64,000 bases of DNA, from contig JAJCZH010000026.1 in NCBI GenBank assembly GCA_029262515.1, forward strand, positions 1-64,000. The letters run 5' to 3'. Under the pieces are notes generated by a model. That model did no database searches. It saw only the letters and a program-made list of their open reading frames with translations, and was not told the origin of the DNA. The stretch comes from Deltaproteobacteria bacterium. Lineage in GTDB: Bacteria > Desulfobacterota > GWC2-55-46 > JADFVP01. The position numbers and the translations under genes are program-made. Numbering within the stretch: the first letter of the stretch is position 1; each line of letters opens with the position of its first letter. Below, piece after piece: positions 26,280 to 32,298 of the stretch.

Positions 26280-26457
26280 GCCGTAACAGCACCAACTTGC
26301 TAGAAACGGCAATTATTAACCAACAGACTCTACTGTTTTTAATGGTGGATGTAGCCAACCCTGCGTGACAGTAAGTAGTATACACTGCCGCTTCTATTTA
26401 TGAGAAAGTGAAAATTGAGTTTTAAAAGCGGTTGGTATTGATTGCTAGAAGGTAAGG

Positions 26458-26612
26458 TGGTGGGCAGTGCCCACCATTACGTCATGCTGAACTCGATTCA
26501 GCATCTAAATACATAGCAAATAGTACTATAATTAAACCCAGACCCTGAATCGAGCTCAGGGTGACAGCACCTTTTTGTCGGGTTACGCTGCGCTAACCCA
26601 ACAAACCCGGTT
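26458..26612. repeat. MITE-like composite repeat, copy 1
   Basis: This ~155-bp unit is shared with 27636-27790. It contains, in order, GGTGGGCAGTGCCCACC, the palindrome TGCTGAACTCGATTCAGCA, a diverged A-rich spacer, the palindrome CCCTGAATCGAGCTCAGGG, and the REP core GGGTTACGCTGCGCTAACCC (26580-26599). The modules are well conserved and the spacer is not, which points to selection or recent transposition of the structured parts. Confidence 0.8.
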
Positions 26613-26621
26613 TCTTACATT

Positions 26622-26858
26622 TTAATCTTCCGGGAGTGCATCAAATTCATTTTTCTTATTTTCAAACCACTCTATCATTGCCTCAGGTTTTACCATAAGT
26701 TTTTTCATTTCATCCATTGCCTTCAAATGCTCTTCATCACCTTTTTGAAACATCTCCATTCCATGTTGCTTACTCATTTCCGCAATATCTTCAAAAGAGT
26801 TGGCATGAAATTCTTTATCACATGCTCCTCCGAGTTGTTTACAATTCATTGTTTTCAT
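26622..26858 (-). CDS. Small DUF1059-like protein
   Basis: A 78-residue protein starting MKTMNCKQLGGACDKEF, with CTC... no membrane segment. The Cys pair near the N-terminus followed by SFEDIAEMSKQHGMEMF matches the DUF1059 layout (CKxxGxxCD, then a helix ending in H-x(2-3)-M). DUF1059 proteins have no firm function. A good binding site (GGAGATAACAG) precedes the ATG. It lies between two REP/MITE-type repeats and may belong to the accessory stretch. Confidence 0.65.
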   Translation of the reverse strand: MKTMNCKQLGGACDKEFHANSFEDIAEMSKQHGMEMFQKGDEEHLKAMDEMKKLMVKPEAMIEWFENKKNEFDALPED

Positions 26859-26956
26859 CTGTTATCTCCTGTTTTTAGATATATTGTATCAGTTCATCGG
26901 TAGGGTATATTTTACCAACCCAACATCTTTTCATCCATACCTTATTCAGCAACTTT

Positions 26957-26978
26957 GTGGTGGGCGGTGCCCACCCTA
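26957..26978. repeat. Fragment of the MITE-like repeat end
   Basis: TGGTGGGCGGTGCCCACC is the same inverted repeat that starts the two composite repeats, followed by the CTACATGGCTG tail also seen at 27887 and near 56593. Confidence 0.6.
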
Positions 26979-27040
26979 CATGGCTGGAATACGGCCAATC
27001 AACCGGCACATCGATCAATCAGTGCTTTACAGAAAAGATG

Positions 27041-27064
27041 TTGGGTTATGCTACGCTAACCCAA
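27041..27064. repeat. REP palindrome
   Basis: TTGGGTTA and TAACCCAA arms around a TGCTACGC centre. This is a variant of the REP core that flanks the transposase gene at 30327. Confidence 0.8.
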
Positions 27065-27073
27065 TCTACCCGG

Positions 27074-27277
27074 CTACTTACGTTTGTTAATAATATATTT
27101 TCTGAATGACCTTAGTAATTCAACTAGGAAATAAATTGTAAAAAACCACGCTAGCACTCTTATCTTCGAGCTATAGCGATCAGGTTCAGTAAGAAACTCC
27201 TCTTGAACCACTACCGCTACAGCGATACAAAGCAAAACGACAAACACAAGACTACGCTTGCCTAACGAATTATTCAT
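27074..27277 (-). CDS. Small membrane protein, two TM segments
   Basis: A 67-residue protein with a hydrophobic segment near the N-terminus (LVFVVLLCIAVAVVV) and a second (VLAWFFTIYFLVELL), ending in a basic tail RKYIINKRK. Its ATG overlaps the stop of the preceding broken frame by four bases (ATGA), so the two were translationally coupled. I do not recognise a family. A membrane immunity or partner protein for the upstream product is one reading, not shown. Confidence 0.5.
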   Translation of the reverse strand: MNNSLGKRSLVFVVLLCIAVAVVVQEEFLTEPDRYSSKIRVLAWFFTIYFLVELLRSFRKYIINKRK

Positions 27278-27626
27278 TCAAGACTCCCAAAACTCCAGCC
27301 GACGGGGAGGCTTAGACTTATAGGCAGAGGTCTAACGCGGTTGTAATACTTATACTTATTCAAATTACGTTCCACATTATATTTATGGTGCAAAGCATTG
27401 GCTTTAAAAACTTCCGCCCCTACTATACTCCCTACATCTAACATACCAGCATTCGTTGGAGGAATTGTTAACAATGAATGTGAGATTGCTTCATTAACAT
27501 TCTGTCTTATTGCACAAGTTTGCGCTTTTCTCTTATATCTCTTCGCCATACGCTGATTCCATTCATACCACTCGTTGTACTTACTTCTTGATACATGGCA
27601 TCGGCAATAGCATCATCAAAACTCAT
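27274..27626 (-). pseudogene. Frame-disrupted small gene upstream of the membrane protein
   Basis: From the ATG at 27626 the frame reads MSFDDAIADAMYQ and then closes after 39 codons. From about 27586 the next frame reads SKYNEWYEWNQRMAKRYKRK and continues to 27274. Joining the two by a one-base correction near 27587 gives one ~117-residue basic protein. The downstream frame alone can start at the ATG of MAKRYKRK (27549). The family is unknown, and a sequencing error cannot be excluded. Confidence 0.45.
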
Positions 27627-27635
27627 CCCAGTCTG

Positions 27636-27790
27636 TAGGGTGGGCACTGCCCACCATTACGTCATGCTGAACTCGATTCAGCATCTGAATCCGAAGCAAA
27701 TACAACATTAAAAGACCAGACCCTGAATCGAGTTCAGGGTGACGATATCTTTTTGTCGGGCTACACCTCACCAACCCAACATCTTTACCC
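27636..27790. repeat. MITE-like composite repeat, copy 2
   Basis: The same module order as at 26458: GGTGGGCACTGCCCACC, TGCTGAACTCGATTCAGCA, spacer, CCCTGAATCGAGTTCAGGG, TTTTTGTCGGG and a degenerate REP core. Positions 27643-27688 are nearly identical to copy 1. Confidence 0.8.
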
Positions 27791-30291: not shown

Positions 30292-30323
30292 GTAGGTTGG
30301 GTTAGCGAAGCGTAACCCAACAT
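30292..30323 (+). repeat. REP palindrome, left flank of the transposase
   Basis: GTAGG leads into the palindrome TTGGGTTAGCG-AA-GCGTAACCCAA and then CAT. It is an exact reverse complement of the right-flank copy. Confidence 0.9.
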
Positions 30324-30326
30324 CTT

Positions 30327-30869
30327 TTATTCATGTCCAACATCTGCCTCAAAATCAACCTTACTACCTGCGCCCCAATCATCTCCGTAAACACCGAGCT
30401 TAACATAGCGAGAAAAACTGGAATGTGCCCAATCTGACGGTGAGGCAACCAACCCGTGTTTTACCGGATTGTAATGGATGTAATCAACGTGCCTTGCAAA
30501 ATCATTTTCGTCTCTAATGCGGTGCTCCCAGAAACGGCGTTGCCATACTCCATGTTCGGCTTTTGAGAGTTTTGAAGCGTTTCCTGATTCTTTAAGACTT
30601 TTCAGACACCGCTTTGTAAAATAAGTTTTAATCAACCGCCACCGTATAGAAAAATCGCAGTCGTGTTCCGGCAATGTCCAGATATAATGAATGTGGTCGG
30701 GCAGAATCACATATGCATCAACCGTAAAAGGGTATTTACTTCTAATATGTTCAAAGGCTTCATTTATTAGCGTAATATTTTCCTCTGTATAAAATAGACT
30801 CTTTCTCTTATCTGTCACTACCGTAAAGAAAAAGGTTGCACCCTTTGCCTGTGACCGTCTGTACTGCAT
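30327..30869 (-). CDS. REP-associated tyrosine transposase (RAYT, Y1 HUH family)
   Basis: A 180-residue member of the TnpA_REP/IS200-like Y1 transposases. The HUH metal motif is in ILPDHIHYIWTLP. The C-terminal family block is HVDYIHYNPVKHGLV followed by DWAHSSFSRYV and GVYGDDWG. RAYTs cleave and join single-stranded REP hairpins. The flanking perfect inverted REPs and several diverged copies in the next 4 kb are the expected substrates. No frameshift or missing motif is seen, so it may be active. Confidence 0.9.
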   Translation of the reverse strand: MQYRRSQAKGATFFFTVVTDKRKSLFYTEENITLINEAFEHIRSKYPFTVDAYVILPDHIHYIWTLPEHDCDFSIRWRLIKTYFTKRCLKSLKESGNASKLSKAEHGVWQRRFWEHRIRDENDFARHVDYIHYNPVKHGLVASPSDWAHSSFSRYVKLGVYGDDWGAGSKVDFEADVGHE

Positions 30870-30885
30870 ATTTACCTGTAAAATA

Positions 30886-30917
30886 ATGTTGGGTTACGCT
30901 TCGCTAACCCAACCTAC
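30886..30917 (-). repeat. REP palindrome, right flank of the transposase
   Basis: An exact inverted copy of 30292-30323, located just before the transposase start. Confidence 0.9.
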
Positions 30918-30935: not shown

Positions 30936-30959
30936 ACGTAGGTTGGCGATACGCAACAT
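30936..30959 (+). repeat. Shortened REP copy
   Basis: ACGTAGGTTGG-CGATACG-CAACAT keeps the REP ends but has lost most of the central stem. It lies 18 bases from the right-flank REP in direct orientation to the left one. Confidence 0.65.
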
Positions 30960-30990
30960 ATTCGGCATTACAAAAAAATATGAACCATAA

Positions 30991-31725
30991 TTATGACAGC
31001 CTAACTATGTGCTTCATAAATGACGAAGTAATCTCAAAAATAAACTCAATTTCTTCTTCAATGACCGCGTCATCGTGCTTTACATAAGAATTTTGATACT
31101 TACAATAATAATCCATAAGCTTTACAAACATATTTGTTAACTCTCTTGAACCACCCTTTTCCTTAAGATGTACTCCCAAGCTCCCTATTTGTTTCTCTAA
31201 AGAATTATTATTTTTCAGAATGCCTTTAAGCAATAACTCAAGAGCTAAACGTAAGTCATCTAAGAGATTTCTCGTAAAAAGTTCATTCTGAAATTTTGAT
31301 AATGCACCCTGATAAAGCTTCAACACTTCAGGATAATCCTCAAGCCAATGCCTCGTTTCTTCAATCAGGCTTTCGTTGATACTAGACTCATCACCCGACA
31401 TAGAGAAATGAGCATAACGAGATAATAGTTTGAATTTTAGGTCTTTTACACTTTGATTCCCTTTGAACCTTTCCAGTTCACAAAGTTCTTTTATTACTTT
31501 ATATTGGTGTTCTGGAGAAAACCTAGCAATGTTCTCCTTAAGCGCTGTTCTTTTGTTAGGAGCTTCAAAAGGATATTCTGCATGTGGAATATCAACATTA
31601 AAGTCAACCGCATAGTCTGTGCAATACCTGGCTATGTCGGGTCCACTGAGACCGTCACTCGTTTCTCCAAGCACATTCGCAGCATGAGTAATAAATGCAC
31701 TTGGGATTGAATGTGAATCAAACAA
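30991..31725 (-). CDS. AbiJ-NTD/HEPN-like protein, possible abortive-infection gene
   Basis: The N-terminal half reads IPSAFITHAANVLGETSDGLSGPDIARYC, then PNKRTALKENIARF and KVIKELCE, a pattern like the N-terminal domains of AbiJ-type proteins. The C-terminal half is helical, with ELLLKGILKNN and SYVKHDDAVIEEEIEFIFE, like HEPN-type domains. The classification rests on pattern only. I place the start at the TTG (31725) because AGAGGAAAAAAG precedes it. The longer ATG frame to 31788 runs into a REP fragment, so its first ~12 residues would be repeat-derived. Confidence 0.5.
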   Translation of the reverse strand: MFDSHSIPSAFITHAANVLGETSDGLSGPDIARYCTDYAVDFNVDIPHAEYPFEAPNKRTALKENIARFSPEHQYKVIKELCELERFKGNQSVKDLKFKLLSRYAHFSMSGDESSINESLIEETRHWLEDYPEVLKLYQGALSKFQNELFTRNLLDDLRLALELLLKGILKNNNSLEKQIGSLGVHLKEKGGSRELTNMFVKLMDYYCKYQNSYVKHDDAVIEEEIEFIFEITSSFMKHIVRLS

Positions 31726-31756
31726 ACTCTTTTTTCCTCTCAAACTGTTAACAGAC

Positions 31757-31792
31757 ACGTAGGTTGGATAGTGCGGCTCATAACCCAATGTC
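31757..31792 (+). repeat. Diverged REP copy upstream of the AbiJ-like gene
   Basis: CGTAGGTTGG, a disrupted centre (ATAGTGCGGCTCA), and TAACCCAATGTC. Only the outer arms of the REP remain. It overlaps the extended frame of the gene at 30991. Confidence 0.7.
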
Positions 31793-31833
31793 TTTATACT
31801 ATCATCTTAAGAATTAAGGAGCGTCATTCTCTC

Positions 31834-32298
31834 CTACTTCTTCTCAAGGAACATTAATGAAGGAACAAAGGCTTTAGGAACAGGCCCACTCGAAGTTATT
31901 TCATGACGTTTTAACTTGGTTCCCTGCTTATTAGCGAGATCATGCCCTTCAGACAGAAAATGACGTATCATTCCCCTCTCAATAGTTCTTAAAGCTTTCT
32001 CCAAATTTTGTCCTCGTTTAGTTATGGCTTCTCCGACAATCAATACCCTCTGCCCATTCTTGGCATTCTCAAGGTGGCGCATTATATTGAGGTTATTAAA
32101 ATGCCCCTTGACACGCCCATAAACATCTACAGACTTTCCAACATAAAGAGCTTCGTATGATGTTCCATGTTTACGTGCGAAAATATAAATACCAGCACAT
32201 TCTTCTGGTATCTTATCCAAGTCCATCGTGTAACCAAACTTTTCCCTCTTATTTCTGTACAGAAGAATCGGCCTGTACCAGTCAATACTTAGGTTCAC
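31834..32298 (-). CDS. GIY-YIG domain protein
   Basis: A 154-residue protein with AGIYIFARKHGTSYEALYVG, then KSVDVYGRVKGHF, and a later Glu in KALRTIERGMIRHFL, matching a GIY-YIG nuclease fold. The N-terminal ~30 residues and a C-terminal tail (ITSSGPVPKAFVPSLMFL) are outside the domain. It differs from the GIY-YIG protein at 712 in sequence and length. It lies next to the AbiJ-like gene and could be a defence or mobile-element component. Confidence 0.7.
   Translation of the reverse strand: MNLSIDWYRPILLYRNKREKFGYTMDLDKIPEECAGIYIFARKHGTSYEALYVGKSVDVYGRVKGHFNNLNIMRHLENAKNGQRVLIVGEAITKRGQNLEKALRTIERGMIRHFLSEGHDLANKQGTKLKRHEITSSGPVPKAFVPSLMFLEKK

What the first reader, a model, noticed from the sequence alone, without database searches (positions are those of the whole stretch)
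30292..30917. Complete REPtron: RAYT gene between perfect inverted REPs
The 32-bp flanks are identical in inverted orientation, and the transposase has its HUH and C-terminal motifs. Identity of the flanks suggests recent activity or selection. The REP core here (TTGGGTTAGCG-AA-GCGTAACCCAA) is long and almost perfectly symmetric, unlike the mismatch-containing REPs of enterobacteria.
Basis: partly seen in the sequence, partly recalled or inferred. Interest (0 to 1): 0.55.

Follow-up and report, generated by a model that had tools for sequence, protein, structure and literature searches.

The report
Ordinary REP transposase between inverted REPs
A small gene for a single-strand DNA transposase sits between two identical, inward-facing hairpin repeats that recur at low copy number in this genome; this is a typical member of a known kind of element, although its repeats are also woven into mosaics with a second class of palindromes.

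Summary
A 180-aa RAYT gene (window 30327-30869, minus strand) lies between two exact 32-bp inverted copies of a GTAG-tagged palindrome, here called REP1. It passes NCBIfam's RAYT equivalog cut-off (191.8 against 80 bits); its only PDB match is E. coli TnpA_REP, 4ER8 (1.2e-39). This is a group-2 REPtron, a known kind.

(1) The palindrome is not symmetric at its centre: of the 11 positions quoted per arm, the inner 3 do not pair in register. (2) Identical flanks are not special: 20 of 97 RAYT loci have an identical core on both sides. (3) Copies are few: 11 at up to 3 mismatches in 2.5 Mb.

A second RAYT in this genome is flanked by a different REP. Among 77 RAYT loci with a classifiable REP, REP type follows the RAYT tree (18 changes; 200 shuffles, minimum 36).

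One side observation may be new: REP1 and the second REP adjoin CGTC-tagged palindromes (5 of 9 CGTC clusters within 60 bp), which are reported to lack a dedicated transposase. No clean empty site was found, so recent activity is unproven.

The parts
30327..30869 (-). RAYT (TnpA_REP-type HUH/Y1 transposase), 180 aa
   Evidence: ORF; NCBIfam NF047646 191.8 bits (cut-off 80); Pfam Y1_Tnp 24.6 bits (cut-off 23); PDB 4er8 E 1.2e-39
30292..30323 (+). REP1 copy downstream of the gene's 3' end, GTAG outermost, facing the gene
   Evidence: exact 32-bp inverted match; fold
30886..30917 (-). REP1 copy upstream of the gene's start, GTAG outermost, facing the gene
   Evidence: exact 32-bp inverted match
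30687..30698 (-). HUH motif DHIH (aa 58-61)
   Evidence: aligned to 4er8
30468..30491 (-). catalytic tyrosine motif HVDYIHYN (aa 127-134)
   Evidence: aligned to 4er8
27040..27069 (-). REP1 copy, 2 mismatches
26577..26606 (-). REP1 copy, 3 mismatches, part of composite unit a
27635..27655 (+). REP2 copy (the REP that flanks the genome's second RAYT), part of composite unit b
26959..26979 (-). REP2 copy, 1 mismatch
26459..26479 (.). degenerate REP2 copy (3 mismatches), part of composite unit a
26480..26566 (.). CGTC-tagged head-head palindrome dimer of composite unit a
27660..27744 (.). CGTC-tagged head-head palindrome dimer of composite unit b

Best explanation
This is a group-2 REPtron. The RAYT is a single-strand HUH/Y1 nuclease that most likely binds the GTAG-tagged strand of REP1, folded as a hairpin, when it is single-stranded. 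It would then cut next to it and transfer it to new sites, giving the dispersed REP1 copies; the gene itself rarely or never moves as a unit. Shown here: gene, motifs, inward-facing REPs, dispersed copies, a second RAYT flanked by its own REP, and REP type following the RAYT tree. Inferred from published experiments on E. coli, Stenotrophomonas and Marinomonas relatives: binding, cutting, strand transfer.
For: NCBIfam RAYT equivalog 191.8 bits. The only PDB hit is TnpA_REP of E. coli over residues 2-175, including the C-terminal extension that PMC8266576 gives to group 2. 11 REP1 copies in the own genome, 0 in the reversed control. RAYT2 at C8:87866-88309 (84 of 176 aligned residues identical to RAYT1) is flanked by REP2; REP2 has 16 hits, some one site read on both strands, against 1 in the control. 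Inward GTAG hairpins on both sides in 43 of 79 named RAYT loci, against 1 of 71, 0 of 74, 0 of 73 and 0 of 72 at four shifted positions. REP body type needs 18 changes on the RAYT tree, minimum 36 in 200 shuffles (77 rows).
Against: No activity shown. No clean empty site: in G003 (same family) purL is followed directly by the NUDIX gene, but ilvE and other genes are missing there too, and the G001 and G002 contigs end near the site. REP1 is present in genomes with no RAYT found, e.g. 22 copies in G001 (81% complete). 36 of 79 named RAYT loci lack a strict inward hairpin pair. On the 57 rows with a host phylum, REP type and phylum each change 15 times on the tree, so REP type is not tied to RAYT more tightly than host phylum is. 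The copy number is low for a REP family.
Confidence: 0.9

Rival explanations
1. An autonomous insertion sequence (IS200/IS605-like) whose 32-bp inverted repeats are its ends; the whole unit transposes.
For: Y1 transposase fold and perfect inverted flanks give an IS-like look.
Against: Only one copy of this gene in the genome; the only other family match is RAYT2, 48% identical, with a different REP. Each flank is itself a complete GTAG hairpin that occurs elsewhere, 11 copies in all. RAYT equivalog score 191.8.
Confidence: 0.05
2. The REP1 copies are maintained for a host function (transcription termination or mRNA protection at gene ends), and the RAYT is a domesticated gene kept for another role, no longer spreading REP1.
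For: REP1 is present in 13 of the 40 genomes lacking a RAYT of at least 150 bits. PMC8049555 calls RAYTs domesticated, single-copy, vertically inherited genes not observed on plasmids (passages).
Against: Low and uneven copy number between congeners (11, 22 and 2 in G000, G001 and G002; G001 is 81% complete). RAYTs of one tree clade with one REP type come from different phyla (for example the starred clade of the window RAYT holds rows labelled Planctomycetota and Myxococcota), which looks like mobility; a misbinned contig cannot be excluded for the 4.7-kb Planctomycetota record. The same passages of PMC8049555 say that RAYTs still replicate REPINs.
Confidence: 0.25

Closest known systems
E. 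coli REPtron / TnpA_REP (PDB 4ER8), group 2
   Same: HUH and tyrosine motifs and C-terminal extension (72 of 157 aligned residues identical); GTAG tag; GTAG-tagged hairpins around the gene (PMC8266576: passages and Discussion part 1 of 2)
   Different: REP body GTTGGGTTA with a GCGAAGCG centre that does not pair in register, instead of the AA/GC mismatch; the residue aligned with bulge-contacting K82 is T here (numbering by the chain as aligned); 11 copies at up to 3 mismatches
GTAG super-family of REPs and REPtrons (Di Nocera et al. 2013, PMC3733652)
   Same: unpaired 5' GTAG, hairpin, REPtron; [quoted passage not shown]
   Different: I could not match REP1 to one of their 24 families, whose consensus sequences are in figures not held. 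GTAG units adjoining CGTC dimers are not described in the sections I read (5, 6, 7, 16 and part 1 of 2 of 17); section 7 does say that Neisseria CGTC-1 elements lie in mosaic regions interleaved with other repeat families
Y1 subclasses of Quentin et al. 2018 (PMC6006769)
   Same: RAYT flanked by GT[AG]G hairpins in a REPtron-like arrangement (passages and section 13)
   Different: subclass not assigned here; the paper puts the E. coli protein in 2.2

Membership tests
REPtron with group-2 RAYT | RAYT protein family membership | tested here: met
   NF047646 191.8 bits, cut-off 80
REPtron with group-2 RAYT | HUH motif and single catalytic tyrosine | tested here: met
REPtron with group-2 RAYT | C-terminal extension of group 2 | tested here: met
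   alignment to 4er8 runs to residue 175 of 180; group definition read in PMC8266576
REPtron with group-2 RAYT | GTAG-tagged hairpins flanking the gene, inward-facing | tested here: met
REPtron with group-2 RAYT | REP stem with an irregularity | tested here: inconclusive
   one unpaired base on the 5' side in the minimum-energy fold (frequency 0.28), a plain 9-bp stem with an 8-nt loop in the centroid; by eye, some homologous REPs read better with an unpaired G on the 3' side
REPtron with group-2 RAYT | REP dispersed in the genome | tested here: met
   11 copies, few
REPtron with group-2 RAYT | strand-specific binding and cutting of REP | not testable with these tools
   needs purified protein
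IS200/IS605 autonomous insertion sequence | whole element present in several copies | tested here: not met
   one copy of this gene; the second family member has other REPs
IS200/IS605 autonomous insertion sequence | empty sites show excision of the whole unit | tested here: inconclusive
   no clean empty site

The most novel reading that the evidence does not exclude
GTAG REPs and CGTC palindromes of this genus form composite mobile units (REP1, CGTC dimer, REP2) that the RAYTs spread, so that CGTC palindromes, reported to have no dedicated transposase, are carried as cargo by RAYT. In two pairwise alignments linking three sites, about 124 bp are 85% identical; the C23/C26a alignment runs from the GTC tag of the CGTC dimer to the far end of the REP1 stem.
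Probability: 0.2. Interest if true: 0.55.

Novelty: new member of a known kind. Interest (0 to 1): 0.27.

Why it matters
As a REPtron it is ordinary. It adds a genome with two RAYTs, each next to its own REP type, and a set of RAYT-REP pairs from several phyla in which the REP body follows the RAYT tree: material for working out which residues read which REP. The mosaic of GTAG and CGTC palindromes bears on how CGTC repeats, for which no transposase is reported, spread.

Tried and rejected
Flank identity as a sign of recent movement: rejected, since 20 of 97 RAYT loci have identical cores. Empty site at purL: tried in G001, G002 and G003, not clean. Residue code for REP recognition: the class 'irregular or perfect stem' changes only 5 times on the tree, and one test column (Ec position 78) gave 3 independent pairs on starred branches and 5 on all branches, too few for a result; columns were not scanned systematically, so no claim is made. 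Plasmid relatives: one record, 16% of the query. Searches in print: the string GTAGGTTGGGTT gave one unrelated mouse paper in the listing; the words CGTC, GTAG, palindromic, REP and mosaic together gave only PMC3733652 and PMC6006769. That is all that stands behind 'may be new'; REP sequences in figures are not searched.

Rows dropped. Of the 106 loci scanned the nine distant ones, L128-L136, were left out of the 97 and of the tree; four of the nine had no hairpin (L132, L133, L135, L136) and two had one (L128, L131). In one search one of 80 loci fell out for a short flank, and more at the shifted positions. In one search only 77 of 97 loci had a hairpin fitting G[ACGT][TC]G[GC]; the other 20 were not counted.

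Full report
What is there. Window 30292-30917 holds an ORF of 180 codons on the minus strand (30327-30869) between two exact 32-bp inverted copies of GTAGGTTGGGTTAGCGAAGCGTAACCCAACAT. The GTAG ends point outward and the hairpins face the gene. All exact inverted 24-mers more than 200 bp apart in the window come from this pair, and the core is not expected by chance (mean 0.00 in 100 shuffles).

The protein. NCBIfam names it REP-associated tyrosine transposase (191.8 bits, cut-off 80); Pfam gives Y1_Tnp, just over its cut-off (24.6 against 23). The single PDB match at E up to 10 is 4er8, E. coli TnpA_REP, 1.2e-39. The match includes HUH, the tyrosine motif and the C-terminal extension that PMC8266576 (Discussion, part 1 of 2) ascribes to group 2. 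So this is a group-2 RAYT.

The REP. As single-stranded DNA its minimum-energy fold leaves GTAG unpaired and has 9 bp, one unpaired base on the 5' side, 2 bp and a 3-nt loop (-8.7 kcal/mol, z -5.5, 0 of 200 shuffles as good). The centroid has only the 9 bp around an 8-nt loop, so the upper part is not settled. By eye, some homologous REPs vary in the inner part with compensating changes beside an unpaired G on the 3' side (GCC-TTT-GGC-G in L029, GCGC-GTCA-GCGC-G in L053); this was not counted. PMC8266576 reports that unpaired positions matter for E. coli TnpA_REP; the residue aligned with its K82 is T in the window protein.

In the genome. The own genome (2,497,218 bases, 38 contigs) has 11 copies at up to 3 mismatches (control 0), four of them within 4.4 kb in this window. 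It has two RAYTs over the cut-off, 84 of 176 aligned residues identical. RAYT2 is flanked by another REP, GTAGGGTGGGCACTGCCCACC, here called REP2, with 16 hits at up to 3 mismatches, some of them one site read on both strands (control 1).

In relatives. Of 59 genomes (own included) 40 have a match to the RAYT family, 32 of them over its cut-off, and 31 have REP1 (reversed control 0 in all 59). With my threshold of 150 bits, 19 genomes have a RAYT of this sort, 18 of them with REP1; of the other 40, 13 have REP1, one of these (G016) with a broken RAYT in two pieces (tabulated by me). Many of the 19 carry RAYTs flanked by other REP types, so the table shows shared lineages rather than matched pairs. 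RAYTs flanked by REP1-like hairpins occur in G000, G026, G039 (two, by the coordinates), G042, G044 and, with one hairpin at a contig end, G019. Within the 59, REP1 is confined to families f1 and f6 and genome G019. Congeners G001 (22 copies, 81% complete) and G002 (2 copies, 98%) have no RAYT match. REPINs in E. coli genomes without a RAYT gene are described in PMC8049555 (passages).

Across phyla. An inward GT[AG]G hairpin with at least 7 perfect pairs is present on both sides in 43 of 79, against 1 of 71, 0 of 74, 0 of 73 and 0 of 72 at positions shifted by -2000, -1200, 1200 and 2000 bases. With a looser scan of 97 loci (80 named, two own, 15 of relatives), 68 have both, 89 at least one and 20 an identical core on both sides. 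On the RAYT tree (98 rows with E. coli, quick method, 28 open forks of 95) the REP body changes 18 times among 77 classifiable rows; 200 shuffles gave a minimum of 36 and a mean of 40.9. On the 57 rows with a phylum, REP body and host phylum each change 15 times (shuffle minima 25 and 24), so by this count REP type follows the RAYT no better than host phylum does. The window RAYT falls with REPs of the GTTGGGTT type (7 rows, 97, starred) and RAYT2 with REPs of the GGTGGGC or GGTGCGC type (14 rows, 95, starred).

Empty site. In G003 (same family) purL is followed by the NUDIX gene directly, without REPtron, 265-aa ORF, GIY-YIG gene or ilvE; the G001 and G002 contigs end. The names purL, ilvE and NUDIX are my reading of the sequences, not from a family search. 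More than one event separates the two orders, so this neither shows nor excludes recent insertion.

Mosaics with CGTC palindromes. The own genome has 16 CGTC-tagged palindromes (control 0) in 9 clusters. Five of 9 lie within 60 bp of one of 23 REP1 or REP2 sites; were the clusters random in a tenth of the genome the chance would be 3.6e-7 (the test was set up after seeing the pattern). A looser scan finds REP1-like hairpins within 25 bp of three more, with 2, 3 and 5 edits. Units C26a and C26b (both in the window) share 124 bp at 85%, from REP2 to the start of REP1; C26a and C23 share 124 bp at 85%, from the GTC tag of the CGTC dimer to the far end of the REP1 stem. Of the 11 units compared the only other alignment over 40 bp joins two units of G001 lying side by side (136 bp, 95%) (units were cut with short flanks). 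REP1 and REP2 swap sides or orientation between units, which speaks for separate landings rather than one moving unit. In congener G001, 6 of 9 regions brought in through REP1 have a CGTC palindrome within 40 bp of REP1 or REP2, one of them with 4 mismatches. Against generality: 0 of 3 G002 loci and 0 of 10 f6 loci with REP1 scanned have a CGTC palindrome; of 24 CGTC loci from nine other genomes one (L204, G021) has a true GTAG REP within 60 bp and one (L192) only a hairpin made by the CGTC arm itself; G011 has 104 CGTC copies but no REP1. The mosaic is thus largely a feature of this genus, and mosaics of CGTC elements with other repeats are known in Neisseria (PMC3733652 section 7). The same paper states that CGTC repeats are not associated with transposase genes (section 16). 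Whether the RAYT moves the composite, or REPs and CGTC units merely tend to land beside each other, is open.

Verdict. A new member of a known kind, well supported; recent activity unproven; one side observation worth a test. On rechecking I corrected facts (REP fold now inconclusive, number of tree rows, CGTC loci of other genomes) but left the odds as they were: the REPtron verdict does not rest on them, and the novel case was already low.

Noticed in passing
L013 (own genome C8:86366-89809): RAYT2 with its REP2 pair lies between guaA and a 251-bp copy of the guaA 3' end at 88% identity; the copy ends within 10 bp of the REP. The name guaA is my reading of the sequence, not from a family search.
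   Followed up: partly
window 26455-27785: Cluster of REP1, REP2 and CGTC palindromes, including two near-copies of one composite unit.
   Followed up: partly
own genome C5, C34, C20 loci (L170, L181, L185): A third palindromic repeat, with TTGCGAG..GAAGCAATC, also stands next to CGTC units; seen by eye.
   Followed up: no
window 30991-31788 (-): 265-aa ORF without Pfam or NCBIfam match at E up to 0.001, beside the REPtron.
   Followed up: no
window 31834-32298 (-): Small protein with GIY-YIG nuclease domain.
   Followed up: no
window 30938-30960 and 31757-31796: Degenerate GTAGGTTGG-led stretches next to the REPtron, possible decayed REPs, seen by eye.
   Followed up: no
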